From IMG/VR virus record IMGVR_UViG_3300021197_000751, positions 1 to 55,767 of that record: a stretch of DNA of 55,767 nucleotides; one strand, 5' to 3'. The translations under genes and the position numbers were made by a program. The stretch is from a virus. Below are positions 12,188 to 38,653 of this stretch, one piece after another. The notes beneath the pieces are model-generated. The model did no database searches, was not told the DNA's origin, and was given only the letters and a program-made list of their open reading frames with translations. Each line of letters starts with the position of its first letter. The first letter of the stretch is position 1.

Positions 12188-12188
12188 G

Positions 12189-17097: not shown

Positions 17098-19551
17098 TCA
17101 CAGTCCTAAAAATGCGTCGTGTGAAATGACACGAACATGCTTTGGCATGATTGTCATCTCGCTCTTGATTACACCCTTATCTTCGGGGATTGGTAGCGGT
17201 GCTTCGCTGATGATGTAATCATCAACTACGATGATAACTTCTTCGCGATTAGCACCCGCACCTGCTTTAGTAAGAGTGAGTGTAATTGGTTCTGTGTGAC
17301 CGTGACTACGGTTAGTTCTGTATTCGTGCCATAGTAGCGGGTCGGAAACAATGATTGACAATTTCATTTCATATTCAACTTGTTTCTCAATAGTAAGGTT
17401 TGGATTGCGCGAACCGCCAAATGGAACTTGCTCAAGTGATTGACCAAGTGAGTTCCTTGATTCTCTAAACGAAGACCCGCGAACAGTCAAAAGGTTCTCG
17501 ATATTGTTGTTTCCTGTAAGTGCAAAGTTTGTGATTTGCGCGAGGTTAACACCGAAAGCGCTAATCTGTCCGTTGTAAAAGAAGAACGGCTTCTCGGTGT
17601 TTGGTGCGATACCTGCCTTCTTTCGTTCTGCTTTACCGTTAGCGATGTTCTCAAACATTCGATGAGTGCTGTATCTGTCACCTTTGTTGCTGTTCTCAAG
17701 ACGGCCTGTATCTGTGTAGCAATATAGCGCATCAAAGTTAACTGATAGTTTAACTTCTGCATCCGCGTCTGCGGCAAGTGAAAAGTCCTTTACTTTACAT
17801 CCTCGCCAAATACGAGTTAGTTGCTTGTTGTCGGATGCTGAACCCGGTGCGGCTACGCTACCTGTTGCGCTTGCATTGTAAGAGCCGGTGTTGCGCGTTC
17901 GCATACTTGACTCAAGAGTGAATGAAGGAACGGTTGGTCCTTGAAATATCAAACGCGACATTCGATTTTGGATTTCTCCATAAGAACCCGCAGTAGTGTT
18001 GAAGTTAGGAGAGCCGGTTGTGTTATCATCCGCGTAAGCACAAACCTTCTGTGTCATGTTTGCAACAGCGTGGTCGAAGGTGAATGGTTCATCAACATAG
18101 ATTCGCTTACCAACAGCATCATGCAAAATGACACGGCGGATTTCATTGCGTTCTGCGTTCTGCATATCAACACCGAGTCCATCAGCGCTACCCCATTTCT
18201 TAGAACCTGCGGCTTCTGCTCGGTCTGTTGGGAACTCAACTGCTGTTGCATCAACGATGAGTAAGTATTCTCCTGCACTTGGCGCGGTAGAAGGAGTCAT
18301 AGTTCCTGTGTATTCAAAGTAAGTATCACCTGCGGCAATAGGTAATTCAGTATAACCACCGGCACATGTTGCTTTGACAGTAGATGGTTCATCAACAACC
18401 TGCGCGCCGAGGGCATAGTATAACCAACGAGCGCTGTTCATCATGGTTTCGATAGCGCCACCTTCGTTCTTCATGCTTTGAGGTTCTTGGATGACAACAT
18501 CACGACCAAGACCAATAACATGGCTTCGACGGATTTCGACTTTGGTTTCCGGTAGTGATACCGTAGCGGCAAGACCTACGAATTGGTCTGTGAGAACAGA
18601 CTCGTCCGATAGTTTAGCGCTTGCGTTGTAAGTCATTCCTGTGTCCATTGTAGGTGTTCCGATTGTGTCAATGAGTATTTCGTCATTATTATTTGATGCA
18701 CCATTCTCTTTCATCTTTGGAGTGACTGTGATAACATTAGCGCTATTGGCTACAATGGTGTATGTATTACCTGTTGTAGCGTAATCGTCAGCGTCATAAT
18801 TTGCGGTTGAACCTCTTACGCGAAGTTGAGAACCAACAAGCATTCCCGCAGGATATTTGAGATTACCATTTGCGTCGAACATTCCGCTTGTTGCTTGTGT
18901 AAATGTAATATCTGTGCAATCAGCGTTGTCGCTGTTGGTTGATTTTGTCATCACCAAACCACCTGCTGTAAGAGTTGCTACGGTTGCTGTTCCGCCTGTT
19001 CCTGTTCCAAGAGTCAAAACATCTCCGATAACATACCCTTTACCACCGGCAGGAGCGCCCGCTGTAAGAGCAGTAATGACACCATTAGCAACAGCCGTGA
19101 CTACAACTTTGAAACCACTTCCTGCACCACCTGTCCCCATAGTGACTACATCGCTTACAGCGTGTGTAGCGCCACCTGCGGTGACAGTATATGTTAGAAC
19201 ACCACCTGTGCCGGAAACAGTATTGATAGTAATTGCTAACCCTGTTCCGCTACCTGTTGACGCGGATTGGGTGACTGTATTAGTTCCTGCATAACCCGAA
19301 CCTGCGTCATCAACTCCCGAACTTGTCACTACGCCGTTTGCAATTGAGGCAATAGCAACTGTCGCGTCACCATCACCGCTACCGCCGGTCGTAGCGACCG
19401 TAGCAACAGAATACCCCGAACCCGCAGTTGTAGGAGCAGTAGTTAGTGTCGCTACGACACCACCACCAAATGCGCCGTGTTTAAGCGCTACTCCGCATTC
19501 ATGTCCGAATGTTATTTCTGCTAAATCTCCTTTGTAGACTGTCGATACCAT
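17098..19551 (-). CDS. Major tail tube-like protein with Gly-rich repeat insertion
   Basis: 817 residues from ATG 19551. Residues about 1-25 (TVYKGDLAEITFGHECG) and the C-terminal 250 residues, which include NLTIEKQVEYEMKLSIIVSD and TEPITLTLTKAGAG, look like a tail-tube or tail structural fold. Between them, residues about 30-200 are repeats of the GSGY/GxGGTATV type (AGSGYSVATV, GSGYAGTNTV, GKGYVIGDVLTLGTGTGG), which are common as surface-exposed modules on virion proteins of marine phages. The gene lies between a terminator-like gene and the chaperone/tape measure block, the usual place of the major tail protein. At 817 residues it is much longer than typical tube proteins, so a sheath or other tail subunit remains possible. 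Confidence 0.6.
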   Translation of the reverse strand: MVSTVYKGDLAEITFGHECGVALKHGAFGGGVVATLTTAPTTAGSGYSVATVATTGGSGDGDATVAIASIANGVVTSSGVDDAGSGYAGTNTVTQSASTGSGTGLAITINTVSGTGGVLTYTVTAGGATHAVSDVVTMGTGGAGSGFKVVVTAVANGVITALTAGAPAGGKGYVIGDVLTLGTGTGGTATVATLTAGGLVMTKSTNSDNADCTDITFTQATSGMFDANGNLKYPAGMLVGSQLRVRGSTANYDADDYATTGNTYTIVANSANVITVTPKMKENGASNNNDEILIDTIGTPTMDTGMTYNASAKLSDESVLTDQFVGLAATVSLPETKVEIRRSHVIGLGRDVVIQEPQSMKNEGGAIETMMNSARWLYYALGAQVVDEPSTVKATCAGGYTELPIAAGDTYFEYTGTMTPSTAPSAGEYLLIVDATAVEFPTDRAEAAGSKKWGSADGLGVDMQNAERNEIRRVILHDAVGKRIYVDEPFTFDHAVANMTQKVCAYADDNTTGSPNFNTTAGSYGEIQNRMSRLIFQGPTVPSFTLESSMRTRNTGSYNASATGSVAAPGSASDNKQLTRIWRGCKVKDFSLAADADAEVKLSVNFDALYCYTDTGRLENSNKGDRYSTHRMFENIANGKAERKKAGIAPNTEKPFFFYNGQISAFGVNLAQITNFALTGNNNIENLLTVRGSSFRESRNSLGQSLEQVPFGGSRNPNLTIEKQVEYEMKLSIIVSDPLLWHEYRTNRSHGHTEPITLTLTKAGAGANREEVIIVVDDYIISEAPLPIPEDKGVIKSEMTIMPKHVRVISHDAFLGL

Positions 19552-23697: not shown

Positions 23698-24837
23698 TCA
23701 TTGTAGGTCGCGAATTGAACCGCTTGCACCAAAGAAACTACCCCATAGTTCACCCATAGTTCGGTAAAGCCCTTCTTGGCCGAGCCTGTTAATCGCGAAT
23801 GGGTCGCCGGTTTCGATACCGGATTCAAAGTATTGTGTCGGAATTGCAGTTTGGAACCACAAGTAATCAGTATCAAGGTAATAGATACGAGATAGTGTGT
23901 TTGCACCTTCATCCGGCATATCCTTTGTTGGGATAATAGGAACTCCATTGTATGTAGCAACAATAAATCCTGCTTCAATACCCGGAACACCCTTCACACC
24001 GGAGTATGTAGGAGTGATTCTCTTGGAGTCCATGAATCGCTGTTGAGATTGCAACAGTTGTTGAGCGCGCATAAGCGTATCATATCCTGTTAGCATAACC
24101 TTTGGATTACCACCGCGAGTCCAAATCTGTTGGAATAATCCATCAAGTTGGTTTAGCGATAGGTTTCGGTTAGCCGCCGCAATATCTACTTCTGCGCTAT
24201 GGAAATCTTTGCTACCGTCGCGAGTAATAGAATACATATCGTGGTCAGTAGTAGCGCTTACATGGCCTGTTCCTGTGGTCATCTTATCCGGGTCGGATGT
24301 AAGACGGTCAAGGGATTCAAAGTTGTTTCCGGCAGGAGTGTCAACATCAACAAGAAGCATCTTGTTAACCATTTCAGCGTGATGCTTACCCATTTCTTCT
24401 TTGAGAACTTGGCGAACATCTCCAAGACCGTCATCCTTGTCGGACAAGAACATGCTCACTTCGGACAAGTCAAAAGTGTGCGCGATGGTCTTTGGTTTTG
24501 CGGCAACATGAAGGAACTCCGGCCTCTTGGTGTCCGGTAGCGTTCCGTTTTCTGCAATACCGCCTGTGACTCCGCTTTCAGCGCGCTCGGTTAGAATACG
24601 CCATCCACTTCGCTCCCACGGCTTCTTAGGTAGAATAGAGAAGGCGTTGAACTCTTGGTTCAATTGTGACCAAACCTTACGACCGTAGACCGCTTGGTAA
24701 GTTCCGGCTGTGGTTGACATCATTGGGCTATCTGCTTTGAGAATGTCCCCTGCGCCGTAGGTGTAGCCTGTTTGAGCCGCACCACCGTAGTAGTATCTTT
24801 CCATATCTTGAACTGTTCTTACATAATTTCGTGCCAT
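23698..24837 (-). CDS. Major capsid protein, HK97 fold
   Basis: 379 residues from ATG 24837; the frame extends upstream to 24891 but that part overlaps the protease gene and lacks a fitting ribosome site. The order of elements is that of HK97-type capsids: an N-terminal arm, a strand pair with SGWRILTERAESG and GTLPDTKRPEF (E-loop region), a long helix (LGDVRQVLKEEMGKHHAEMVNKMLL), an A-domain with NPKVMLTGYDTLMRAQQLL, and a C-terminal strand segment (RIYYLDTDYLWFQTAIPTQYFESGIETGD). The protease/scaffold gene directly upstream and decoration-like genes downstream support the call. It should form the icosahedral shell. Confidence 0.85.
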   Translation of the reverse strand: MARNYVRTVQDMERYYYGGAAQTGYTYGAGDILKADSPMMSTTAGTYQAVYGRKVWSQLNQEFNAFSILPKKPWERSGWRILTERAESGVTGGIAENGTLPDTKRPEFLHVAAKPKTIAHTFDLSEVSMFLSDKDDGLGDVRQVLKEEMGKHHAEMVNKMLLVDVDTPAGNNFESLDRLTSDPDKMTTGTGHVSATTDHDMYSITRDGSKDFHSAEVDIAAANRNLSLNQLDGLFQQIWTRGGNPKVMLTGYDTLMRAQQLLQSQQRFMDSKRITPTYSGVKGVPGIEAGFIVATYNGVPIIPTKDMPDEGANTLSRIYYLDTDYLWFQTAIPTQYFESGIETGDPFAINRLGQEGLYRTMGELWGSFFGASGSIRDLQ

Positions 24838-24842
24838 ATATT

Positions 24843-26273
24843 TCACTCTCCCCTCAATGCTTTGTCGGCCATGCGGTGAACATCGTCCCACGACATATTA
24901 GCCATTTCCGTAGTATCGGGAATTGTAATTGATGTAGTCGAAGCACTCTTAGTGAGTGTTTCTCCGCTACCGGATGAAACGCGGTTGATGCGCTCATCAA
25001 GTGCAACAACAGCCTTTTGCAATTCAAGAAGAGGTTTGCGGGAGTCAAACTTTGCTCGCGCTTTCTCATTCTTTGCAATTCGCTGTTCTTTGGATAGGCG
25101 GTCTGCGAAGTAATCTCCGAGAGAGCCTTTGAATTGTTGTTCAACGGATGCGGCCTTGTAGACTTCGTAAGCCGCTTCAATATCGGATTGAGAAACATTT
25201 TCGGGCATAATAAAATCTTCACCCTTAATGACATTCTTGTTTCCGCTTGGAGCGCTACCCCAATTCTGCTTAGGTCGCTTTGAGGACTCGCCTTCACCTG
25301 CTCCTTCAAGAGAACCTTGTCCTCTATGGTCGTAGCCGGATTGTCCGGGTCCATATCCTTTGTTCACGCTATCGAAATGAGCGCGAGCATCTGCAATATC
25401 ATGTCCGCCGGACTTTGCTGTTTGCTCAAGCCAATTAAGATAGTCCATTGTTATCATATCGTCTGCTTTGTTAGTCATATTCATGTCATCTCCATACATC
25501 ATATCGTCCGTTTCGTCATCTTCTTCCTCTTCCTCTTCGTCGCCTCCGAGGTCAAGTTTAGGTTTGTTGGACTTTGGTTTGTCACCGAATGGGCCGGGGC
25601 TACCGTCACCATCGGGGTCGAGTGATTCGGGCATTTTTGATTGGCCCTCTTTATCCTCGTCTTTCTTCTTTTTATCATCTTCTTCTTCATCCAATTTCTT
25701 GGATAGTCGTTCTAATACATTTTGTAGTTCACTCATTGGGTCGGTCATAGTATCACCTGTGTCCTCCTTTAGAATACGAAATTGCGCTTCGGGGTTAATA
25801 CCCTTCTCACAAATCGTCACCTCATGGAGTTCCATACGACGGATTTCACGGTAGTCACCGCGAGTAGCGTCGCTTTTGTTGACGCGCTCAAAGGCTTGAC
25901 CGCCTATTGAGAACGACCGTAGGTTGCCCTTACGGATTTCGGATGCAACTTCGCGGGCTTTTTCAATATCCCCGCGCAGTTGAATAACAACAAACATACC
26001 TGTGTCATCCACTTCGGATTTCCAAACACGACCGTTGCTATCTGTGTAAGAAGGAATAACCGTTCCTACTTGAATGTTAGAGTGTGCAAGTTGCACATTG
26101 CGGAATGCTTCTGCTTTCATGAATCCGCCAAATGCGTCTTTCAAAGCGCTACGAGTAATAAGGTCGCCTTGCTTGTCAACCATCTCGACAGAAGCATAGC
26201 CCGCTACAACCAAATCATCACCGAATCCCTTGAGAACAAGGGGTGAAGTGGGTGAAGGTGCGAGAATTGCCAT
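24843..26273 (-). CDS. Prohead protease fused to scaffold-like region
   Basis: 476 residues from ATG 26273 (TTG 26285 is an alternative). Residues about 1-180 resemble prohead proteases of the HK97/XkdF type: VAGYASVEMVDKQGDLIT at the start, then AHSNIQVGTVIPSY with a likely catalytic His, and RKGNLRSFSIGGQAF with the likely catalytic Ser, ending in RRMELHEVTICEKGINPEAQ. A very acidic and Lys-rich linker follows (about 190-270). The last 150 residues are helical (AYEVYKAASVEQQFKGSLGDYF) and resemble scaffold tails. The C-terminus has MSWDDVHRMADKA, shared with protein 32893-33243. It would guide shell assembly and then cleave head proteins. Confidence 0.85.
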   Translation of the reverse strand: MAILAPSPTSPLVLKGFGDDLVVAGYASVEMVDKQGDLITRSALKDAFGGFMKAEAFRNVQLAHSNIQVGTVIPSYTDSNGRVWKSEVDDTGMFVVIQLRGDIEKAREVASEIRKGNLRSFSIGGQAFERVNKSDATRGDYREIRRMELHEVTICEKGINPEAQFRILKEDTGDTMTDPMSELQNVLERLSKKLDEEEDDKKKKDEDKEGQSKMPESLDPDGDGSPGPFGDKPKSNKPKLDLGGDEEEEEEDDETDDMMYGDDMNMTNKADDMITMDYLNWLEQTAKSGGHDIADARAHFDSVNKGYGPGQSGYDHRGQGSLEGAGEGESSKRPKQNWGSAPSGNKNVIKGEDFIMPENVSQSDIEAAYEVYKAASVEQQFKGSLGDYFADRLSKEQRIAKNEKARAKFDSRKPLLELQKAVVALDERINRVSSGSGETLTKSASTTSITIPDTTEMANMSWDDVHRMADKALRGE

Positions 26274-26299
26274 CGACTCGTTCAAGCGCTACAAGTATA

Positions 26300-29200
26300 T
26301 CAAACGCGCGGTTTGCTTATGGTGATGTTTCCTTTGTTATCTGTAATGGCTTCTTCGCCCGCAGTAGTGCGAATAACCTTTTCTTTTTTGTCAGTTTTAG
26401 CGGGCTTCTCTTTGTAATCGCGCGATGCAGGGTCAAAGTCCGGTAGCGTATCATCGTTCATGTTGGTAGTTGGTCCTCGCGGGGACTCAACATCTGCATC
26501 TGCGTAATCAACCCCAAGACCTTCTACACCTGTGTATGTGATTTTCTCTTTCTTCAATCGCTCAAGACCGCGCTCAAGGAGTTCAAGACCTTGTTTGATA
26601 ATCTCTTCTTCTTTTGGAAGTATTTTTTTCCGTTCCTTTGTGTGACCTGCGGGTGCTTCGGGGTCTACCTTTTTACTCTTGTAGCGCTTCGGAGTATTCA
26701 CGGCTTTTTCTTGGTCTTTCTTGAGAAGTATAGTCGCTATTGGCGACCAATGAGGGCGCATATCTTCGGATAGTTTGATGAAGTAATCTTCTCCATGACC
26801 CCATAGAGTCCTTTGAGGTTCAAGCATCCACCCACCTTCTTCTCTATCGACTTTGTAAATGACTTCATCATCAAGTGATGGAAACAGAATGTGTATAGCG
26901 CCTTTATTCAATCTAACTTTGTGGGGTATTTTTGAATCGCTACACATCAAACTTAGCGATTCAACACTATCTGCGGCTTGAGGATGTGCATCTCGGTCAA
27001 CTCTTGCCGAGCGCAATTTGTATGTAGGGTTCTCATCACCCGCTTTTGTAGCACCTGTGCAAAATACGGAGATGTATTCGCCTTTGTCATACCCTCTTGG
27101 GCCTTTAGCGCTACCAACATCCATGTAGTGTTGACCATTCAACTCTACTGAACGCGAACCGTAATGTTCGGGATGCATAATTGGACCAACACCGATACGA
27201 TAATTCATTCCTTTACGGTCAAGAATAATCACATCAATCTTCTTTTCTTTACTCAAAAGAATCCACTTAGGGTGTCGTATCTCCCCTCTCATGTATGTAG
27301 CCGATGCATCGCGTAGCAGTATATCACAAGAAGATTCTTCGCGTAATAGATGAATTGCTTCTTCTAACCCTTCGTCATCCGCGCGCTTTGTGTTATACGG
27401 TTCGGGCATTTTGATATGTTCGGATGATTCAAAGTGTGCGCGTAAATGCCTAACTCGGTCTTTAGCGGGCATGTTGTGAGTTTTCTCATCTGCCGCCTCA
27501 AGTAAGTCAATGAAGTAAAGCATATCTCCATCAATTACTGCATGAACAACAAAGTCTTTTTCGTTGACTTTGCTCATCTCATCATCTATATCTTCGGTTA
27601 ATTCAACCAACTTCATATCCGCATTATACGCTTTCACACGCTTACCTTTCTTTTGGAGTATAATTGGTTCACCTTTAGGAATATGCGACGCTACCCAATC
27701 ACCGCTAAACCCGCGTAGATGTTTCAAGTCGCTGTAATCAAAGATTCTGTGCATTGATTTTACAGGAACAGGGCGACCGTCCTTCTTGTAAATGAGCGTA
27801 TCGTCGGTTAATGAGTCAAGAAGTTCAATGTCGGACCTGTTTAACATTTGACCCGACCCCATATCGTTGAACACAGGAAAGTTGCTATTAACACTTTCAC
27901 CGGGAATACCGGATGGTTGCATAGCGACAGGTGGATATAGCGTATTCCCATCTGCTGATATATCGTATTGTGGCAATTCCGGGTGAAACTCACGAAGCGC
28001 GTAAGGGTCCATTCTCATCCTCATATTTGATTCACCTTGATGATAATCACCATTATCGTCATGAACTATGAGTCTGTTCTCTCTCAATCCGTGTGTAGCG
28101 ATTCTCCTTGAAGGTCGAATAACATGACCAAAAGTTCTGTTTGCTTTAGGGCAAGTATGAACAGCAGGTAATTGTATTTCATTAACACCAACACCGCCTG
28201 TTCCAACAGGCTCAAACTGTGTGTTGATTTTACCTGCTTCGTTAGTGACACCTTTTACATCACCTTTCAAACGCTCAATGAAATTACCGAATCTTTCTGT
28301 TAGATTTTCAAATCCCTTATCGCCTGTGTCTTTCTTCAAAGGTGCTGTCTTATGCGGAACTGCTTCGATAGCGTTAGCGCTACCTTTGGATTGCTTAAGC
28401 AGGGCGCGATACACTTTGTTTAGCGCGTGTATTTCCGAATACATAGAATAATTAACATTCCCTGCAACTTTAGGTCGCCCTGCGATTTTAATTCCTTCAC
28501 CGCCACTCATCAAAGGTGTATATTCATCGAGTTCGGCTTCATGATGGTGTCCTCCTTTAGCCGATTTGTAATTGTAAGCCCTTTGACCGTCACCTAAACC
28601 AAACTCCTTAACTGAACCAATAGGTAATTCTTGCATTAAGTTTTGACCGCCCGTATCAATCATTTTACCCTCTTCGTCTTTCTCGCGACCTTTAGCGCGA
28701 TGAGGTATATATCGAGCATGTAGAACATCTGCAAAGTCTTGAGGTGTAGCGTTCTTAGGTAATACGCGACTTACTTCATCAAAGATTTTCTTCACTAATT
28801 CATTTTTCTCATGAGGTGGGTAATGGCTTGAGTCCAATTCACCATTGACATATCTTTGCATCATACTCATGACTGATTTATCATCATCATCCATCTCTAT
28901 GTTGCGTCGAATGTCGCCACCTTGCCATGTCTGCCTTTGTAGCGGCATAGTCACATCCTTTGTGATTCTGTTGATACGCGACTCAATAGCGGCAGGTTTC
29001 ATACCTTGATTCTCAAAATGAGACTTTAGGATATTCATAACCGATTCACTTTGCCCGCCATCGCGCGAAGACTGAACCCTTGCATTCTTTATCCAATTCT
29101 TTCTCTCTTCGGGGTTTAATGTTCTCATCCATGTTTCGCATAGATGCGCGAGCATCTTGGTATCAGCCCATGCTTGATTTGCAAGTTTAGGTGTGTGAGT

Positions 29201-32200
29201 TTGAAACATATCGGGGTTAGCCCATTTCAACAAAGGCTTCATTATTTGACTTGCCGCTACTGCTTGAGCATGCATCTCTTGCGCATCGTCCAAGTAGTTT
29301 TTGCGTAATTCGTCTTCTGTGATTTCGGGCATTTCACCTACTTCGTCCACAACATGTCGTGCCTGTTCAGTTGCTAATTTTTCAAAATTAACTGCGCTTT
29401 CTGTGCGTCCATGTTTGTGTTCTATTCTTGCGTATCTTCTTAAATCCGATAGCGCATCTTGATAATGTGATAAAGGGTTAGGCGCGACAATATATTGCTT
29501 TCCTTCACCGTAATACCCTGTAAAGTTAGGCTTCTCCATCACATCATTACGCAATCTGTTCCTTTCAGCGAAACCTAATTCCGAAACATTTGAACCGTTT
29601 GAAGATTGATGAAAACTACCACCGTCGCTATTTGTAGCCATCAACTCTTGTTCTAACTCTCTTCTACTGTCGATGTTATCTTTTAGAGTGTCCGGCAATC
29701 GAAGAACACCTCCGTCTTCATGAAAGCGTTTCATTGCCGCCTCATATTCGTCTTTGTCATAAACCGCTATTTTTGCATTGAATGGGTTATCGTCTTTGGT
29801 AGCGCTAAGTAATTCATTTTGATATATTTCACCTGCGTCTTCACCTCTACCTAACGGGTCGCGATGTTTGGTTTTGTAGACTGTATGTGGCATGGTTTGT
29901 TTTTCATGATGAGTTGAATGGTCCTCTTCGCTATAATTGTCAATACCGTGATGTGCTTGAAAGAGTAAAGTGTGCATCATGAGCATACGGTTGTATGCAT
30001 CATCTTTGCTTACTTCGGATGAATGAACGCTTTGTTTCTTTTTTCCCATTACACCTTTACTTGGGCTGTGTCTTTCAATACCTCTTACATCGCGACCAAA
30101 TGTTGAATCTCCAACCCGTCTTAGCGTTGCGCCGTCTGCGTCTTTTTTTGCACGACTCTTAGAAACCCCACCTAATGTATTCGATATAAGTCGCGCATGT
30201 CTCATTGCTAAGATGCTGTCACTTGGTCGGTTTTCATTCTCTAAATCTCTCACCCAATGGTGATTGTAATCTGCTGAAAAGTGGTTGGGGTTCCTTTGAT
30301 TCTCATCATGCGATAGTAGCGGTGTAATGAGTCCGGCATGTCCGGCTGTGACAGGGGATGATGTTTGTTGATAACCACCAACATATTCAACAAGACCCAT
30401 TTCCGGTAATTTATCCTCCATGTATTCTTCTTCGTCAACATCTTCTGCTTGTGTAGCGGTTGGATTTCTACCCACTCCTTGCGGGAATGGAACTCGGACA
30501 GACTTACCTTCTTCGTATTGTGCTAACAATTCATCCTGTTCAGCCTCACTCATTTCTGCGCGCCTCATAGCCGCAATCAAATCCTGTTTGATGTTCGTGT
30601 GCGCGGGGTCATCGGGTTTAGATTGAAACACATCTTGAAACAAAGTAGGTTTCATGTAAGAAGAACCTAAACTATCAACAGTATTTTTCACAGAAGGTAG
30701 AACTCTTTCGCGCATTTCATCATCAATCATTGGTTCTTCTTGAGTGACAAAGACAGAAGGGAATGCTTCATTCACAGCATCGTCAAAGTGTGACCACTCT
30801 TCACCATACGCGCCTTGCAGATTACCGATAGCGTGACTCATGTAATACAGAAGTGTTTTATCCAACTCCGGCACACCTTTCAAGGGGTCGAAGAAATGGT
30901 CTTTCAACTTGTAAATGTGTTTAGAGTTATTCAAGAACTCCTTATTATCCGCTGTTGAGCCTTTCTCGCCATAGATTTGTGCAAATTGATTCATAACTTG
31001 TCTCAAATCTTTTTCATCTAACGCAGTATGATAATTCGGGGTATCTTCACCTTCACCTATATCGTCAAGTAGCGTAGCATCTTCGTTGGTAGAAGAAGGC
31101 AAACTTGCGAGAACATCGTTTTGCATCTCTCGCGTGATACCTGCTTCATCAATAAGCGCTATTACATCCTCGTCTTGGAGGTTTTCATTTCCCACCCCTA
31201 TTTTTAGTAATTTCTGTTTGAAGTCTTTATTGCGCATCATATCTTGCTGACCGCGCGTTTGACCAACTGTTCCTCCGGGTAATGAGTTGAAACCGGATGT
31301 GCCGACATTGCCCGAATAGACACCATGTAGCGCGTTAGCAAAAACAGAAGTATGTCTTGTGAGAAACCCTCTTGCATTATGCCCTAATATCCTGTTGATT
31401 TCTTTATCATCAAAGCGAGGATTAGTCATTTCGTAGTTAACATCATCTATATGACCTGCGCCATCTAAGAACCATTCCGAGAACTTTATCTTGTCTTCGT
31501 AATCAATAAGAGGTATGCCAAAATACATCATCCAAAATCCCGAACGGTATTTAGCGCTATCTCTTGACTCACTCTTCGCCTTCAATCGCTTCGTATTCTC
31601 TTGCTCTATCCTTCCGCCTTCACCATACAGGTTATCCCAAATGTAATCATCGGGAACTCCGCGCAACTCCCATATCTTGTGTTGAAAGAAGTGATTTTTT
31701 AATTGTGAGTTCACCAACAAGTTTCGTGCATTCTCATCACTTTTGTATGTGCCATTTTCCTTTCTGTTTTTGATGACGGCTTTCAGTCTATCTTCATTGA
31801 TGGTTAATGATGTGAACTTATCATTGAACTTATCCCTATACTTGCGAAAGTTGTCTACATATTGTTTGTTATATCCTGCTTCGTTAGCGGAATTAGACCA
31901 TTTACCCATGTTTTGAGATTGAGCCAATCTTGGCTTGATACCCATATCAGCCATAGCGCTATCCATCAGTTTGCGCGTAGGTTCACCATCCATTTTACCG
32001 TTAAAGATGGATTGAATCATTTGAACCATCATCGGAGAAGAAGAGTTGGATGAAGCGAATGATGATTGAGAGTGAGTGAGATTTAAGTGACGGAAAGGGT
32101 GTTCTTCTGCGTCGGGTGCGCTACCTTCACGCGGTTTTGTTGGTATATCCCAACTCAAAAAACGCTGTGCGAGTTCTCTTCTGCGTTCGGGGTTAGGGTT

Positions 32201-32545
32201 TTTACCATTAGGTGAACAATCGTGCCAATCATCAAAGTCAAACATTAGTATCGCTTCTTTAGGATGCTTTTGACCTCTTGTGACATCTTGACTACGCGTG
32301 TTGATAATGTTGGCTTGCTCTCTACGGGGTAAATCACCACTTGTGACTGTCGCGATTTTGGCTTTCGCTAAGTAATTTTCAATATCGTGAATAAAAGACG
32401 GAACAAAAAGTCCATGATTCTCTAAATTGTTTGCGCTAAACATCACATCTGCGGCTTCATTGAGCGCAGAATAACCTTCAAAATATGATTTGAGAAAAAG
32501 GTCTATCGTGCGCGTATGATATTGTGTAGGACTGTCTTTTGACAC
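26300..32545 (-). CDS. Giant virion-cluster protein with degenerate DNA ligase-like C-terminal region
   Basis: 2081 residues from GTG 32545, preceded by GGTGGTGATT. The first 1500 residues are hydrophilic, His/Asp/Asn-rich and mostly helical, with no family I recognise. Residues about 1610-1900 resemble the nucleotidyltransferase and OB domains of ATP-dependent DNA ligases: EPIILQKKGKRVKAYNAD where motif I (KxDG) is expected, FVVHAVIDGDMLYFIDLL like motif III, DILLRDASATYMRGEIRHPKW like motifs IV and V, then an OB-like part (VELNGQHYMDVGSAKGPRGYDKGEYISVF). The KxDG lysine is missing, so ligase activity is unlikely. The tail is charged. Lying between portal and protease genes, it is probably packaged or an assembly factor. 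Confidence 0.7.
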   Translation of the reverse strand: MSKDSPTQYHTRTIDLFLKSYFEGYSALNEAADVMFSANNLENHGLFVPSFIHDIENYLAKAKIATVTSGDLPRREQANIINTRSQDVTRGQKHPKEAILMFDFDDWHDCSPNGKNPNPERRRELAQRFLSWDIPTKPREGSAPDAEEHPFRHLNLTHSQSSFASSNSSSPMMVQMIQSIFNGKMDGEPTRKLMDSAMADMGIKPRLAQSQNMGKWSNSANEAGYNKQYVDNFRKYRDKFNDKFTSLTINEDRLKAVIKNRKENGTYKSDENARNLLVNSQLKNHFFQHKIWELRGVPDDYIWDNLYGEGGRIEQENTKRLKAKSESRDSAKYRSGFWMMYFGIPLIDYEDKIKFSEWFLDGAGHIDDVNYEMTNPRFDDKEINRILGHNARGFLTRHTSVFANALHGVYSGNVGTSGFNSLPGGTVGQTRGQQDMMRNKDFKQKLLKIGVGNENLQDEDVIALIDEAGITREMQNDVLASLPSSTNEDATLLDDIGEGEDTPNYHTALDEKDLRQVMNQFAQIYGEKGSTADNKEFLNNSKHIYKLKDHFFDPLKGVPELDKTLLYYMSHAIGNLQGAYGEEWSHFDDAVNEAFPSVFVTQEEPMIDDEMRERVLPSVKNTVDSLGSSYMKPTLFQDVFQSKPDDPAHTNIKQDLIAAMRRAEMSEAEQDELLAQYEEGKSVRVPFPQGVGRNPTATQAEDVDEEEYMEDKLPEMGLVEYVGGYQQTSSPVTAGHAGLITPLLSHDENQRNPNHFSADYNHHWVRDLENENRPSDSILAMRHARLISNTLGGVSKSRAKKDADGATLRRVGDSTFGRDVRGIERHSPSKGVMGKKKQSVHSSEVSKDDAYNRMLMMHTLLFQAHHGIDNYSEEDHSTHHEKQTMPHTVYKTKHRDPLGRGEDAGEIYQNELLSATKDDNPFNAKIAVYDKDEYEAAMKRFHEDGGVLRLPDTLKDNIDSRRELEQELMATNSDGGSFHQSSNGSNVSELGFAERNRLRNDVMEKPNFTGYYGEGKQYIVAPNPLSHYQDALSDLRRYARIEHKHGRTESAVNFEKLATEQARHVVDEVGEMPEITEDELRKNYLDDAQEMHAQAVAASQIMKPLLKWANPDMFQTHTPKLANQAWADTKMLAHLCETWMRTLNPEERKNWIKNARVQSSRDGGQSESVMNILKSHFENQGMKPAAIESRINRITKDVTMPLQRQTWQGGDIRRNIEMDDDDKSVMSMMQRYVNGELDSSHYPPHEKNELVKKIFDEVSRVLPKNATPQDFADVLHARYIPHRAKGREKDEEGKMIDTGGQNLMQELPIGSVKEFGLGDGQRAYNYKSAKGGHHHEAELDEYTPLMSGGEGIKIAGRPKVAGNVNYSMYSEIHALNKVYRALLKQSKGSANAIEAVPHKTAPLKKDTGDKGFENLTERFGNFIERLKGDVKGVTNEAGKINTQFEPVGTGGVGVNEIQLPAVHTCPKANRTFGHVIRPSRRIATHGLRENRLIVHDDNGDYHQGESNMRMRMDPYALREFHPELPQYDISADGNTLYPPVAMQPSGIPGESVNSNFPVFNDMGSGQMLNRSDIELLDSLTDDTLIYKKDGRPVPVKSMHRIFDYSDLKHLRGFSGDWVASHIPKGEPIILQKKGKRVKAYNADMKLVELTEDIDDEMSKVNEKDFVVHAVIDGDMLYFIDLLEAADEKTHNMPAKDRVRHLRAHFESSEHIKMPEPYNTKRADDEGLEEAIHLLREESSCDILLRDASATYMRGEIRHPKWILLSKEKKIDVIILDRKGMNYRIGVGPIMHPEHYGSRSVELNGQHYMDVGSAKGPRGYDKGEYISVFCTGATKAGDENPTYKLRSARVDRDAHPQAADSVESLSLMCSDSKIPHKVRLNKGAIHILFPSLDDEVIYKVDREEGGWMLEPQRTLWGHGEDYFIKLSEDMRPHWSPIATILLKKDQEKAVNTPKRYKSKKVDPEAPAGHTKERKKILPKEEEIIKQGLELLERGLERLKKEKITYTGVEGLGVDYADADVESPRGPTTNMNDDTLPDFDPASRDYKEKPAKTDKKEKVIRTTAGEEAITDNKGNITISKPRV

Positions 32546-33246: not shown

Positions 33247-33633
33247 TCACACCTGCCCTTGCTTCTTGAAAACGCCACCAATTCTATCCGGGCCAACATA
33301 GCCCAAAGGTCGCGATTCTCCTTTAGCAATGACATTTTCGATACTGTTGAACTGCATTACAGGAACACCGCCCGCGTATCGGTCATTGATTCCTGTAATC
33401 TTAACTTCGTTTTGTGATTTGTAAATAGCGGTCACATCATCAGCGAGGTAATCGCTTGTTGTTTGAATACTTCGCAAAAACTGTTCTGCTGATACAAGGT
33501 CATTGTTTGATAGCGCAACTTTGAACTCGGCCATAGCCGTTTCTAATTTGCGCACCATCGGGTCCATCTTGTTAAGAGAGTCGCTCATAACTAAGGCCAT
33601 TACCGCGCGACCTTTCAATGTATCGCTTATCAA
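33247..33633 (-). CDS. Small portal-adjacent protein, unknown
   Basis: 128 residues if read from TTG 33633, which overlaps the portal stop; ATG 33600 is a good alternative start with AAGGTCG upstream. The protein has a helical first half (MVRKLETAMAEFKVALSNNDLVSAEQF) and a strand-rich end (EVKITGINDRYAGGVPVMQF). No family recognised. It follows the portal gene and may act in head assembly. Confidence 0.55.
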   Translation of the reverse strand: MISDTLKGRAVMALVMSDSLNKMDPMVRKLETAMAEFKVALSNNDLVSAEQFLRSIQTTSDYLADDVTAIYKSQNEVKITGINDRYAGGVPVMQFNSIENVIAKGESRPLGYVGPDRIGGVFKKQGQV

Positions 33634-35498
33634 AACCCACTTTCTTGATTCTTACTCGTAGGGTCTTTTGCGGCTTCTACTGCGTCAAGTGCTTGCTCGG
33701 TGACAGTCTTTTCCGAACCTCTTTGATTCTTCTTAGATGATGGCGCGCCACTCAAATGTGTTTCGGATGAAATAGGTGCAGGTCCGTTGTCGCGTTGCCC
33801 TGTGCCTTCACCAAGTCCCGCTACACCGCCTTTTTCCATCATCATAATTTGACCTCCGGGTGGCGCTCCGCCTTGTGGTGGTAGCCCCCCGCCACCTTGA
33901 GGCATCATCGCACCGCCCATTGGAGGTGAGCCTTGTTGTGGAGGTGGCATTGGCATACCGCCTCCCGGCATTGGAGGTGGCATACCGCCCGGTGGTGGGT
34001 TGCCGGTAGGTGGCATTGGTGGTGCGCCGCCGCCACCTGCGGCGTTAGGGTCTTGTTGTGGTTGAGGTTCGGGTTTCTTGTAAGTGAAACGAATATCGCT
34101 ACCTGCACCTTCTGTGAGTTCTGCTTCAAATCCAAGTTGTTGCATACGCTGTGCGATGTTAACTTCTTGCTCATCGCGTCGTAGTCTTGTCACATCATCT
34201 TCTTCTTCGTTAGGGTAAAGAGTTAATTCCCAATCTTCAACACCCATCTCGTTTAGCAAACGCGGGAATATATTTTTAGCATATATTTTTTGTCCGTATT
34301 CAACAGCGCGATTTGTGACAAGGATTTGCATTCCTTCATTGTTTAGTCCGCCGGATTTACCCGCGTCCATCATAAAAATACTTGAAACACCATAGAAAGC
34401 GGCTATACGCATTCTTACTTCATCGCGGATTTGAGAATACTGCATCTCATCAAGACTATCCATGAAGCGAACGAACTCAACTTTACCGCGACCGGACGCT
34501 GATTCAATACCAACTTTAGGTATGTAATGCGGGTCGCGTTCCATCTTCTCTTCTGCCCCCTTCCAAAAAGAAGCAGTAGATTGAATGTTATCGGTGGTGA
34601 TTGCAAGAATACCGCGAGGGATTCTTCGCTTTTGATATGCAAGATAAATGTAATTATCCATAGCGGTGAGAGTTTGCGCTTGTCTCCACATAGTAGCGAC
34701 AGGGCTACGACCATACAGTTTAGATGGATTGTATTTGCTTGTGTGAATTATTTCTCCGTCGATGTAGTATTGTGTTTTACCGCTACCTGCTGTATTGATG
34801 AAATGAACATCTTGAAGAGGTAATCCGCATCCTTCTACATCGCAATTGTGATGGTCGCCATTATGCGGATATGTTTTATCGCGATGAACAGGACATATGA
34901 GATACCTGCCACCTCTTGCTCCGCGCTTATCAGCAACTATTCTCATGAATGTGGGGTCGCCTCTCATGATTTCTTTAATTCGCATAAACGATATTTCTCC
35001 ATTATCGGGGTCGATGAAATACTCTTTGATGAGGATAAGGAAACAATCATCAACAATATCTAAATCCCATTCAATTTCACGCATAACATCCATGAATGAT
35101 TGGTCCATACTGTTTCTTTGGTCTAAGAACCAACGCGGGTAGAGTATTTCGTCAACATCGGGAGAAGCAAACTCCGTATTCCCGCATAAACGACATTCGG
35201 TTATTGTATCGTGTTGGTATTCTTCTCCACAGTTTGTGCATTTCTTGTGAAACTTCTTCTCCCAATAATGCCCGCGTCTAAATACTTCTTGACAAAGTGT
35301 GTTAATCGTAGTTCTCAAAACAACGGATTCTTGGACTGTTGCGTATAGAGCAGGAATACTTACACCTTGAACAAGAACAGGTTCTTGAATACCGCTTTTC
35401 CATAGCGGCATAATAGGTTCGGGAGTTGTTCGTCGTCGGAATGGTTTAGACAGCGATGATAGGAATCGGCCAACAACGCCTTTTTTCTCTTCAACCAT
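33630..35498 (-). CDS. Portal protein with zinc-ribbon insertions
   Basis: 622 residues from ATG 35498, overlapping the upstream stop as TAATG. Portal-like features are SIPALYATVQESVVLRTTIN near residue 50, the long helix/strand core, ATMWRQAQTLTAMDNYIYLAYQKRR near 290, and AAFYGVSSIFMMDAG with GGLNNEGMQIL near 390. Two cysteine clusters are unusual: C87, C90, C102, C105 (CTNC/CRLC) and C202, H205, C219, C224 with nearby histidines. The last 140 residues are Pro/Gly/Met-rich and probably disordered. It should form the dodecameric DNA gate at the head vertex. The terminase and protease genes nearby support the call. Confidence 0.85.
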   Translation of the reverse strand: MVEEKKGVVGRFLSSLSKPFRRRTTPEPIMPLWKSGIQEPVLVQGVSIPALYATVQESVVLRTTINTLCQEVFRRGHYWEKKFHKKCTNCGEEYQHDTITECRLCGNTEFASPDVDEILYPRWFLDQRNSMDQSFMDVMREIEWDLDIVDDCFLILIKEYFIDPDNGEISFMRIKEIMRGDPTFMRIVADKRGARGGRYLICPVHRDKTYPHNGDHHNCDVEGCGLPLQDVHFINTAGSGKTQYYIDGEIIHTSKYNPSKLYGRSPVATMWRQAQTLTAMDNYIYLAYQKRRIPRGILAITTDNIQSTASFWKGAEEKMERDPHYIPKVGIESASGRGKVEFVRFMDSLDEMQYSQIRDEVRMRIAAFYGVSSIFMMDAGKSGGLNNEGMQILVTNRAVEYGQKIYAKNIFPRLLNEMGVEDWELTLYPNEEEDDVTRLRRDEQEVNIAQRMQQLGFEAELTEGAGSDIRFTYKKPEPQPQQDPNAAGGGGAPPMPPTGNPPPGGMPPPMPGGGMPMPPPQQGSPPMGGAMMPQGGGGLPPQGGAPPGGQIMMMEKGGVAGLGEGTGQRDNGPAPISSETHLSGAPSSKKNQRGSEKTVTEQALDAVEAAKDPTSKNQESGF

Positions 35499-36919
35499 TA
35501 AATCAGCCTCTCTATACGGTGAATGTCGTCCACAAGGCGGATAACTTCATTGTCCCGTTGTCCCCATGCAAGGACTTCATGCTCTTCAACTTTCCACTCT
35601 CGGAGTAGTTTGTCGCGCTCTTCGGGAACATCCTTCCAATTTTCCCACTTAACAACACGGTATAATTCATCTCTTCTTGACTTCACTATGTCGCTTTTTC
35701 GTCCGCGCATATCAAGCAGTTCTAAGACCGCTTTGGCTTGACCTTTCTTCATTTGAAGATGTGGTGAAATACCTTTGAGTAATTTGCGTAAATCATCAGC
35801 ACCGTAGAATTGAAGCCTGTGCTGTGTGCGCTTGCTATTCTTGTGTATTTTCAAATCAGTTTGAAGAACTCCACACCCAAGAGATTTATGCAATTGTTCA
35901 CAATGCAATTTACCTCTACCTCCTGTCGCTACAAATCCTGCTCTTGGTTCTCCGCGCTTAGTGATTGTGATATACCCGTCAGCGTCGAGGAAACCTGCGG
36001 CGTAAGCCCAAATATCTTTGACGATAACCATATCATTACGAACTATTCCGTAGTTTGTTCCAATCTTCTCAATATCAAACTCTATTCCATGCGTTTTCAG
36101 CATGGATGCCATTTTCCTTATCGTTAGATGCTTTGGTGAACCTATTGAATTGTAAATCTCATTTGAAGATAGCGGACCTCTATCTGTTAGCAAGTTTGCC
36201 GATTGTGTTAGCCATATAGCCTCTTGCTTCTTAATTGCGTCAATTGGATGTAGCGCCTTTTTCCATTGAGATTTAGCATCCTTTCTCATCTGTCTTGAAT
36301 CGAGCCATATTTGCAACTGCTCTTCATTGAAGTCACCTTCGACTTGTGATAATTTTGTTATTACATCATTGGCTTTTTCCCACATAGCGCATGCTCTTCG
36401 TAATGATACTTCGCGCGATACACCATGTTTCCTCAAAGCGTGAAGGTTTCTGTCGGAAACCCCAAGAGCGCGTATAGATGAGAGATGATTGTCAGCCCAC
36501 GGAAGAGATTTCAATGTTGATTCTACTTCTTCTCGCTTAGCGATTCTTATTGCGTTGATTGCAAGGTCAATGTCATCTCGCATATCCTTTCTTTCGCGAC
36601 GAGCCATTCGTAATTCCTTAACCATTGATTCAGCATCTTTACCAAACATTGATTGAAACCACCCGTTGTGAGGCATAGCGCTTTTGAGTTGTTGAGTTGG
36701 CTGAACGCTTTGTTGAGCGACAACCTCCTGTATTTTCTTCTTCTCTTCTTCTTGCTCTTGAGCATCCGGTTGAGATGCGACGCTTGGTGCGGATAATTCA
36801 CCTTCGCCTTGTGATTGTGTCGCGGGTGCATCTCCTATATTAGCAGAAGAAATAGAGCCACTTGCTTTACGCAAAATAGCGTCTATCTCTTCGTCCTTTA
36901 GGATTGAACCCGTCCACAT
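35498..36919 (-). CDS. Packaging-block protein with LAGLIDADG-type motif
   Basis: 473 residues from ATG 36919. An acidic, Gln-rich N-terminal part (about 30-80) is followed by helical, basic segments (VKELRMARRERKDMRDD). Residues about 245-290 look like a winged helix (LSSNEIYNSIG, IRKMASMLKTHG). Residues 308-316 read AGFLDADGY, a LAGLIDADG motif, followed by GYITIT, GKLHCEQLHKSLGCGVLQTD and LQFYGADDLRKLLKGI, the usual order of one LAGLIDADG endonuclease domain. The position between the small basic protein/terminase and the portal is where small terminase or adaptor genes lie. It may be a packaging factor with a captured DNA-binding domain. Cleavage activity is not shown. Confidence 0.7.
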   Translation of the reverse strand: MWTGSILKDEEIDAILRKASGSISSANIGDAPATQSQGEGELSAPSVASQPDAQEQEEEKKKIQEVVAQQSVQPTQQLKSAMPHNGWFQSMFGKDAESMVKELRMARRERKDMRDDIDLAINAIRIAKREEVESTLKSLPWADNHLSSIRALGVSDRNLHALRKHGVSREVSLRRACAMWEKANDVITKLSQVEGDFNEEQLQIWLDSRQMRKDAKSQWKKALHPIDAIKKQEAIWLTQSANLLTDRGPLSSNEIYNSIGSPKHLTIRKMASMLKTHGIEFDIEKIGTNYGIVRNDMVIVKDIWAYAAGFLDADGYITITKRGEPRAGFVATGGRGKLHCEQLHKSLGCGVLQTDLKIHKNSKRTQHRLQFYGADDLRKLLKGISPHLQMKKGQAKAVLELLDMRGRKSDIVKSRRDELYRVVKWENWKDVPEERDKLLREWKVEEHEVLAWGQRDNEVIRLVDDIHRIERLI

Positions 36920-36920
36920 A

Positions 36921-37256
36921 TTAACAATTCCACCTTTTGAGAGATGCGCCTTTTGGTGTCAGTTTGCCACCTTTGCTTGTAGCGCCTTTCATCCCGCCCA
37001 TTCTTGCGCAGAATGATTTGCGTCGCTTGGCTTTCTTTGAACCGGGTTTAAGTTTGCTCGGTTTCGTCGTGACCGGAGGTTTGAGATTCGCGCCGGATTT
37101 GCGCTTTGCGGCGGCACGACCCTTAGCGTTTAGTCCACCTTTAGGACTATGCTTATTTGGATTGTAGCCGTGAAACGGCTTAGACTTCTTCTTCGCTTTC
37201 AGCATCTCAAATGCTATCTCGTCCGGTGTGCAACACTCGCAGTATTCTTCGTTCAA
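36921..37256 (-). CDS. Small basic protein of a widespread phage family (DUF6321-like)
   Basis: 111 residues from TTG 37256, with AGGGTTGAT upstream and a four-base overlap with the terminase gene. The motifs SPKGGLNAKGRAAAKRKSGANLKPP and KSFCARMGGMKG, ending in KGASLKRWNC, are typical of a small Lys/Arg-rich protein found in many tailed phages, which I believe is listed as DUF6321. The N-terminus has a CECC motif. The strong positive charge suggests nucleic acid binding. The biochemical role of the family is not known to me. Confidence 0.7.
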   Translation of the reverse strand: MNEEYCECCTPDEIAFEMLKAKKKSKPFHGYNPNKHSPKGGLNAKGRAAAKRKSGANLKPPVTTKPSKLKPGSKKAKRRKSFCARMGGMKGATSKGGKLTPKGASLKRWNC

Positions 37257-38653
37257 TCAATCAACCCTGCCATCATATCATCAATATCGACTATTCGTTC
37301 TCGGAACTCGGTAGTTCCCCAATGCGCTAAAGCAAGCGCGATAGCGAAGTCATCGTGGCGACCGATGCTATCCAACTTGCCCTTCTTTGACATGCCGAAC
37401 ATGAGTAGTTCGCGTTCTAACTCGCTCATAAGGGTTCGGGAGTTTTCGTCACCCCACGGCAACCTTAGTTGCTCTTTCTCAAAACGCATAACTAATCCCA
37501 TGAGAAGCGATTCTCGGCGTTGCCGAGTTGAAATGAATGTCTTAATTGGTAAGTCTGTGTCCGCGCGTAATTCAGTAGCGAACACACGCTGAAAGTTGTT
37601 CGCTTCAAGTTCTATAACATCCGGTCCAAACTTTGAGTTGAGTTTTTGAATCTCCATAATCTGTGTTCGGAAATCCATATTCTTTCTACGAACCACATGA
37701 ACTAACTCAAGCAGTTCGGGATTAGTGGATGGGCGACGAAGCACCACCATAACGGTGTAGTCAGCCGACCTGTCCGATGAAATAGCAGGGTCCCAACCGA
37801 CGAAGTATTGGTCATCGGGGTCGCCATCTGCACGATTGATGATTCTTAAATCGCTATCTTTTGCGGCTTGAAGAACCAACGAAGGGAATAAACTGCTCAT
37901 ATCATCCATTGGTTCACACAGGTATTCGCGAGCAAATGCAATAGCGGGCATATCGTTTCTGCGCGCATCAAGAGAATCTAAATCCCACCGTTCCGGCCAT
38001 AGCGCTACACCTTTAGCGTTAATAGCGGGGTATGTTTCTACGAGGTAGCCCTCACGCTGTTCTAATTCTGTGTAAAGGTCAGTTGGTGTGAACGGTGTTC
38101 CTACAATCATCAATTTTGAAGAGTGGTGGAGTGTAGGGACAAGAACCTCATAAAACCAACTTGCGACTCTTTGAAGTTCGGTATCTGTCGTTCCCCACAG
38201 AATGTCGTCGCATAGAATGAGGTCGGGGTGAATACCACGAATAGCACCACCAACAGACTTCGCGCTGATGTTTGAACCATTGCTAAAACCAAAGAATGTC
38301 TTTGACCAAGAATCGGGTTTCTTCATGCGCGCCATGAACGGTATTCCATCTATGAGGTCATTGAGTGTTCTCATATGGTGAATAGATTGATGCAAACTGT
38401 GGCTGATAAGAACCGCTTTACATTTTGGATTAAACGCTACTTTCCAAAGAAGGTAGCCGAGGAACAGCGTTGATTTACCGTGGTCACGCGCCGCTTTCAC
38501 ACAATAGCGCCGTTGAGCCTCAAGATTGTCATACCACTTTTCGTGATGATGCGATAATTGAAAACCAAGAATATCTTCAAAGAAGAACTTGAAGTCGCGC
38601 TTAGCAACTTCGTAGTCTATCTCTTCAAGTGTTTCAAGGCTCAAGCCCTCCAT
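37253..38653 (-). CDS. terL: Terminase large subunit
   Basis: 466 residues from ATG 38653, with GAGGTGATT nine bases upstream. The ATPase part shows a Walker A-like site ARDHGKST (55-62), Walker B LILCDD (145-150) and the coupling motif VGTP (184-187). The nuclease part shows GWDPA with Asp288, DVIELEANNF (Glu348/Glu350) and GRHDDFAIALA near 436, the expected metal-binding acids of an RNase H-like fold. The length is normal for the family. It pumps DNA into the prohead through the portal and cuts the concatemer. I see no intein or truncation. Confidence 0.95.
   Translation of the reverse strand: MEGLSLETLEEIDYEVAKRDFKFFFEDILGFQLSHHHEKWYDNLEAQRRYCVKAARDHGKSTLFLGYLLWKVAFNPKCKAVLISHSLHQSIHHMRTLNDLIDGIPFMARMKKPDSWSKTFFGFSNGSNISAKSVGGAIRGIHPDLILCDDILWGTTDTELQRVASWFYEVLVPTLHHSSKLMIVGTPFTPTDLYTELEQREGYLVETYPAINAKGVALWPERWDLDSLDARRNDMPAIAFAREYLCEPMDDMSSLFPSLVLQAAKDSDLRIINRADGDPDDQYFVGWDPAISSDRSADYTVMVVLRRPSTNPELLELVHVVRRKNMDFRTQIMEIQKLNSKFGPDVIELEANNFQRVFATELRADTDLPIKTFISTRQRRESLLMGLVMRFEKEQLRLPWGDENSRTLMSELERELLMFGMSKKGKLDSIGRHDDFAIALALAHWGTTEFRERIVDIDDMMAGLID

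What the first reader, a model, noticed from the sequence alone, without database searches (positions are those of the whole stretch)
26850..27720. Degenerate DNA ligase-like domain inside a 2081-residue protein of the head gene cluster
Residues about 1610-1900 follow the order of ATP-dependent ligase motifs III to V and an OB fold, but the KxDG lysine of motif I is replaced. A dead ligase between portal and protease genes suggests a DNA-end or nick-binding part of the virion or of the packaging machine.
Basis: partly seen in the sequence, partly recalled or inferred. Interest (0 to 1): 0.75.

Follow-up and report, generated by a model that had tools for sequence, protein, structure and literature searches.

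The report
Dead DNA ligase in virus head protein
A large family of uncultured marine archaeal viruses carries, in a giant protein next to its shell-building genes, a DNA-joining enzyme domain that has lost every catalytic residue yet is kept under selection as strong as that on the portal, so it probably now binds (DNA or another head part) instead of joining DNA.

Summary
Residues ~1596-1867 of the 2081-aa ORF (26300-32545, minus strand) form the nucleotidyltransferase and OB domains of an ATP-dependent DNA ligase. AlphaFold2 on 43 homologues (pLDDT 82) gives the fold; the 50 best PDB matches are all DNA ligases (best E 6.7e-14). Every catalytic site is replaced: motif I Lys in 186 of 186 homologues, motif III Glu, motif IV Lys (Arg) and the motif V lysines. 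A KxDG 35 residues upstream (107 of 186) has the wrong spacing and is disordered in the model. The gene is present in 59/59 MCP loci and 39/39 portal loci with enough sequence, always one protease gene from the MCP. The dead domain is the conserved core of the protein (dN/dS 0.03-0.07, portal 0.05), while ~1,500 N-terminal residues diverge to 8-20% identity between clades. The viruses are relatives of Druskaviridae, probably magroviruses; three near-whole relatives show no other recognisable ligase. Best mechanism (inferred): a non-catalytic binding module that anchors a fast-evolving body in the head, on DNA or the portal vertex. Whether the protein is structural, packaging-related or injected is undecided.

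The parts
26300..32545 (-). Giant ORF, 2081 aa, GTG start; carries the dead ligase near its C-terminus
   Evidence: full-length homologues L001 (94%) and L002 (71%); >100 homologous ORFs, mostly 1850-2580 aa when complete
27866..32545 (-). Residues 1-1560: fast-diverging N-terminal body, no recognisable domain
   Evidence: 8-20% identity between clades over residues 61-1560; no Pfam and no credible PDB profile hits
27776..27787 (-). KKDG at residues 1587-1590: decoy KxDG upstream of the true motif I position
   Evidence: 82-83 residues before motif III position versus 46-66 in real ligases; present in 107/186; low-confidence stretch of model
27257..27760 (-). Nucleotidyltransferase-like domain, residues ~1596-1763
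   Evidence: AF2 pLDDT 82, Foldseek to DNA ligases, PF01068 hits in 22/43 members, dN/dS 0.03-0.07
27665..27682 (-). Motif I equivalent, residues 1622-1627 (IPKGEP; KxDGxR in ligases): Lys and Asp replaced, Gly kept
27536..27544 (-). Motif III equivalent, residues 1668-1670 (HAV; DGE in ligases): Glu replaced
27500..27514 (-). Motif IIIa equivalent FIDLL, residues 1678-1682: Asp invariant as in ligases
27311..27328 (-). Motif IV equivalent, residues 1740-1745 (CDILLR; EGxxxK in ligases): Glu not conserved, Lys to Arg in 186/186
27251..27265 (-). Motif V equivalent, residues 1761-1765 (WILLS; WxKxK in ligases): both Lys lost, Trp invariant
26945..27256 (-). OB-fold domain, residues ~1764-1867
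   Evidence: AF2 strands, Foldseek alignments of ~355 columns spanning both domains of 4eq5 and 2cfm
26720..26920 (-). Extra beta-sheet plus helices after the OB fold, residues ~1876-1942
   Evidence: AF2 model; present in the full-length homologues
26408..26560 (-). Conserved C-terminal tail, residues 1996-2046 (KEKiTxTGvxGLGxDYAxxxxSPxGPT...PDxDP), found in no other ORF scanned
33630..35498 (-). Portal protein gene (context)
   Evidence: phrog_18178 E=2.8e-74; 31% to HVTV-1 portal
24843..26285 (-). Prohead protease gene, S78 type (context)
   Evidence: PF04586 E=2.8e-9
23698..24891 (-). Major capsid protein gene (context)
   Evidence: phrog_24667 E=1.3e-55; ~33% to HVTV-1 MCP
37253..38653 (-). 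Terminase large subunit gene (context)
   Evidence: phrog_38 E=4e-59

Best explanation
The C-terminal part of a giant head-module protein is an ATP-dependent DNA ligase core (nucleotidyltransferase + OB fold) that lost its catalysis long ago and was kept as a binding module (shown: ancestry, loss of all catalytic residues, universal synteny in the loci checked, purifying selection). Inferred: it acts as a non-catalytic clamp that docks the protein on DNA, most plausibly at the genome end or inside the packaged genome near the portal vertex, while the conserved C-terminal tail directs it to the procapsid and the ~1,550 N-terminal residues form a fast-evolving body held in, and perhaps ejected from, the head.
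For: Fold: AF2 pLDDT 82, top 50 PDB matches all DNA ligases. Death: 186/186 homologues lack the motif I Lys, motif III Glu, motif IV Lys (now Arg) and motif V Lys; scaffold residues (IIIa Asp, following Arg, a Gly, motif V Trp) are kept in 186/186. Function retained: dN/dS 0.03-0.07 against 0.05 for the portal; 90-96% identity to L002 in residues 1601-1900 against 47-79% over residues 1-1600. Structural-module role: 59/59 and 39/39 loci, 1371-1453 nt from the MCP. Conserved tail unique to this protein. Invariant residues of the domain include 10 basic against 5 acidic (counted), compatible with nucleic-acid binding. In HVTV-1 the same slot holds large proteins with MuF, zeta-toxin and ART domains, a cargo-like context.
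Against: No direct evidence for DNA binding, for presence in virions or for ejection. A charge count is not specific. The ligase DNA-binding domain that normally precedes the nucleotidyltransferase was not recognised, so the ring-shaped clamp of cellular ligases may be incomplete. No homology between this protein and the HVTV-1 slot proteins was found.
Confidence: 0.5

Rival explanations
1. Protein-protein module: the ligase fold has become an assembly adaptor (portal, capsid or protease binding) with no nucleic-acid role, as T4 gp63 promotes tail-fibre attachment separably from its RNA ligase activity.
For: Position and fixed linkage to protease and MCP; conservation at portal level; T4 gp63 precedent, where mutants lose ligase but keep attachment activity (PMC3004832).
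Against: Does not explain why a DNA-handling fold was recruited; invariant basic residues concentrated in the HRIF, KDRxRHLR and GExRHPKW motifs.
Confidence: 0.22
2. Ejected anti-host protein: the dead ligase is delivered into the cell with the genome and masks nicks or ends, or competes with the host ligase, to protect the incoming DNA.
For: Polyvalent-protein theme of giant multidomain proteins encoded among virion genes (PMC5512222); HVTV-1 slot holds zeta-toxin/ART and MuF proteins; fast-evolving N-terminal body; P1 DarA/Hdf precedent of head-packaged co-ejected proteins (PMC12810830).
Against: No effector domain was recognised in the N-terminal 1,560 residues; the ligase domain itself evolves slowly, unlike a typical arms-race domain.
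Confidence: 0.18
3. Nucleotide- or cap-binding relic: the pocket still binds a nucleotide without transferring it, as in the snurportin m3G-cap domain, a non-catalytic relative of the capping-enzyme fold (my knowledge).
For: 15 of 43 members hit Pfam SPN1_m3Gcap_bd, best E=1.7e-4; motif I Lys is mostly aromatic (Y/W, 148/186).
Against: Better and broader match to DNA ligases including the OB domain; motif III, IV and V pocket residues are lost too.
Confidence: 0.06
4. The domain is still a ligase with unusual chemistry, using the upstream KxDG lysine.
For: Upstream K is invariant in the 43-sequence alignment (K14); KxDG in 107/186.
Against: Wrong spacing (82-83 against 46-66), disordered in the model, KxDG broken in the other clade, all other catalytic residues lost.
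Confidence: 0.02

Closest known systems
Archaeal/eukaryotic ATP-dependent DNA ligases (PF01068; Thermococcus 4eq5, Pyrococcus 2cfm, human LIG1)
   Same: Nucleotidyltransferase + OB architecture, P-x-P-x-M-like entry to the domain, FDxL (IIIa), Arg in the following helix, Y/G/W scaffold of motifs IV-V
   Different: All covalent-catalysis and nucleotide-contact residues lost; embedded in a 2081-aa head-module protein; DNA-binding domain not recognised
Snurportin m3G-cap-binding domain (PF21974)
   Same: A non-catalytic member of the nucleotidyltransferase superfamily used for binding; weak sequence hits in 15/43 members
   Different: Eukaryotic transport factor; overall structure here is closer to DNA ligases, with the OB domain
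T4 gp63 (RNA ligase 1 / tail-fibre attachment)
   Same: Ligase protein with a morphogenesis role separable from catalysis (PMC3004832)
   Different: Catalytically active, RNA ligase, tail fibre, not a structural part of the particle; no sequence relationship tested
Polyvalent / MuF / DarA-type head-packaged proteins
   Same: Giant protein encoded among portal, protease and MCP genes
   Different: No known effector, ParB, methylase, peptidase or MuF domain recognised

Membership tests
ATP-dependent DNA ligase | Nucleotidyltransferase + OB fold | tested here: met
   AF2 and Foldseek
ATP-dependent DNA ligase | Motif I KxDGxR nucleophile | tested here: not met
   Lys replaced in 186/186; upstream KxDG is not at the motif I position
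ATP-dependent DNA ligase | Motifs III (Glu), IV (Glu, Lys), V (two Lys) | tested here: not met
ATP-dependent DNA ligase | Pfam gathering score for PF01068 | tested here: inconclusive
   window 12.8-13.1 bits, below 26.2; two distant members just reach it
ATP-dependent DNA ligase | Nick sealing / self-adenylation | not testable with these tools
   needs protein
Order Magrovirales (Poseidoniales viruses) | MCP/portal clade next to Druskaviridae | tested here: inconclusive
   closest named relatives are HVTV-1-type viruses at 31-34%, matching published statements (PMC10768690, PMC8651126); magrovirus reference records were not held
Order Magrovirales (Poseidoniales viruses) | PolB, clamp loader and chaperonin in an oppositely oriented replication cluster | tested here: met
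   met in relative G003 only: PolB, RFC-type AAA, Cpn60; the window itself is a fragment without that cluster
Polyvalent proteins | Several disparate effector domains in one virion-encoded polypeptide | tested here: not met
   only the dead ligase recognised
Snurportin m3G-cap-binding domain | Sequence/fold match better than to ligases | tested here: not met
   ligases score better by Pfam and Foldseek

The most novel reading that the evidence does not exclude
A DNA ligase was captured, killed and turned into a hallmark structural or ejection component of the head of a large lineage of marine archaeal tailed viruses: a pseudo-ligase clamp that holds the genome end or nicks inside the particle. 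A published 'ATP-dependent DNA ligase' of some magroviruses could even be this dead domain.
Probability: 0.4. Interest if true: 0.8.

Novelty: new variant of a known kind. Interest (0 to 1): 0.64.

Why it matters
Pseudoenzymes of the covalent nucleotidyltransferase superfamily are few, and I found no paper describing one in a virion module. Here it was present in every locus checked of a large lineage of marine archaeal viruses, so it is a core part that any model of their heads must explain. It also warns that 'DNA ligase' annotations in these viruses may point to a protein that cannot ligate, which matters for claims that they replicate independently of the host.

Tried and rejected
AF2 on a 3-sequence alignment was useless (pLDDT 34); the 43-sequence one solved it. 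HVTV-1 gp113/114/115 and the protease as homologues of the giant protein: no signal by hhalign. Search of the N-terminal 1,560 residues for known folds: only chance hits. Decaying relic: rejected by dN/dS 0.03-0.07 and universal retention. An active ligase elsewhere in the relatives: not found in three nearly whole records by PF01068, PF09414, PF01653, a phage-ligase HMM or motif scan; the PF14743 search was uninformative because its controls were silent, the phage-ligase HMM is weak (it does not even find the dead domains), and 2.9 kb of one record was not fetched. Named phage records: no homologue of the full protein. Bacterial and archaeal genomes: no homologue of the domain. The tail motif elsewhere as a shared targeting signal: only in fragments of the same protein. 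The upstream KxDG as the nucleophile: rejected.

Full report
What the window is. All large genes lie on the minus strand: terminase (37253-38653), an HNH-like endonuclease (35498-36919), portal (33630-35498), three small ORFs, the 2081-aa ORF (26300-32545), S78 protease (24843-26285), MCP (23698-24891), then tail genes. It is an IMG/VR virus record, a fragment of 55.8 kb. Portal and MCP are closest, at 31-34%, to the haloarchaeal Druskaviridae (HVTV-1). A relative of 91 kb carries PolB, an RFC-like clamp loader and a Cpn60 chaperonin in an oppositely oriented cluster, as described for magroviruses (PMC10768690). Assignment to Magrovirales and to Poseidoniales hosts is therefore inference; no reference magrovirus was held.

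Is the ligase real? In the single sequence the evidence is thin (PF01068 E=0.096). In the family it is strong and comes from several methods: 22/43 members hit PF01068, best 1.2e-5; a PDB sequence-profile search lists five archaeal DNA ligases first; profile-profile with nine real ligases gives P=5.8e-5, hhalign probability 65%; AF2 reaches pLDDT 82, pTM 0.70; the 50 best Foldseek PDB matches are all DNA ligases, with about 355 columns over both domains. TM-scores are moderate (0.53 at best), as expected if the two domains sit in different relative positions and the proteins are distant.

Is it dead? Yes, as far as sequence can tell. Over 186 near-complete homologue domains, overlapping loci included (51 non-redundant at 95%), motif I Lys is Y/W/I/M/S, motif I Asp is mostly Q/E/K (D in 5), motif III Glu is I/V/F/L, motif IV Lys is Arg in all, and the motif V lysines are L/M/V and S/T/D/R/N/V; the IIIa Asp, the following Arg, a Gly and the motif V Trp are invariant. 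A KxDG (residue 1587 in the window) lies upstream in 107/186, but 82-83 residues before the motif III position, where real ligases have 46-66 and the aligned position here has 43-49; it is in a disordered stretch of the model, just before an element resembling the P-x-P-M entry of ligases (the entry resemblance is my reading of the alignment).

Is it functional? The gene is universal among the loci checked: 59/59 MCP loci with at least 2.7 kb upstream and 39/39 portal loci with at least 8.5 kb downstream carry it, with 1371-1453 nt between its stop and the MCP (some contigs occur in both sets). A pattern-limited scan confirmed 426 stretches in IMG/VR and none in 84,980 bacterial and archaeal species genomes. 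dN/dS of the nucleotidyltransferase half is 0.07 and 0.03 in two comparisons, against 0.05 for the portal and 0.11-0.21 for the N-terminal body (dS near 1 or above in the wider comparison). Between clades the nucleotidyltransferase half keeps 40-65% identity (OB half 30-52%) while residues 61-1560 fall to 8-20%. A conserved tail (1996-2046) follows and occurs in no other ORF scanned.

Mechanism. Shown: a ligase-derived, apparently non-catalytic, strongly constrained domain in a head-module protein. Inferred: it binds. DNA is the first candidate because that is what the fold handled, and invariant residues are biased to basic (10 against 5). The portal vertex or procapsid is the likely place because of gene position. 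The body may be ejected, as in P1 DarA/Hdf (PMC12810830) or polyvalent proteins (PMC5512222); HVTV-1's slot holds a MuF protein and a zeta-toxin/ART protein, but no homology links them to the present protein. T4 gp63 is a precedent for a ligase protein serving assembly apart from catalysis (PMC3004832).

Known or new? The kind is known (a pseudoenzyme of the covalent nucleotidyltransferase superfamily), the setting is not described in the papers I could search; the original magrovirus paper was not held. Published accounts give magroviruses an ATP-dependent DNA ligase (PMC10160649, PMC10768690, PMC12999244). In three nearly whole records here the only PF01068-like sequence, if any, is this dead domain, so some of those annotations deserve a check; I do not claim they are wrong.

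Noticed in passing
L146/L082/L166 source records (103, 107, 91 kb): No recognisable active DNA ligase in three near-whole magrovirus-like records, although the literature states magroviruses encode an ATP-dependent DNA ligase.
   Followed up: partly
L006:6230-14564 (HVTV-1 gp113-gp115): The equivalent slot in HVTV-1 holds a protein with an HEMGH metallopeptidase-like motif, a MuF protein and a zeta-toxin plus ADP-ribosyltransferase protein of 1313 aa.
   Followed up: partly
window 26408-26560 (-): Conserved C-terminal tail motif TGxxGLGxDYAxxxxSPxGPT...PDxDP of the giant protein; possible procapsid-targeting or protease signal.
   Followed up: partly
window 2-12202 (-): ORF of at least 4067 aa running off the window's left end, with a Laminin_G_3/ConA-like lectin domain; likely host-recognition tail protein.
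   Followed up: partly
window 48020-55594 (-): 2524-aa ORF with no Pfam or PHROGs match.
   Followed up: partly
window 35498-36919 (-): HNH-like endonuclease gene between terminase and portal; ORFs of the same size lie there in L001 and L002.
   Followed up: no
window 17098-19551 (-): 817-aa protein with a Phage_tube_2 tail tube domain, large for a tube protein.
   Followed up: no
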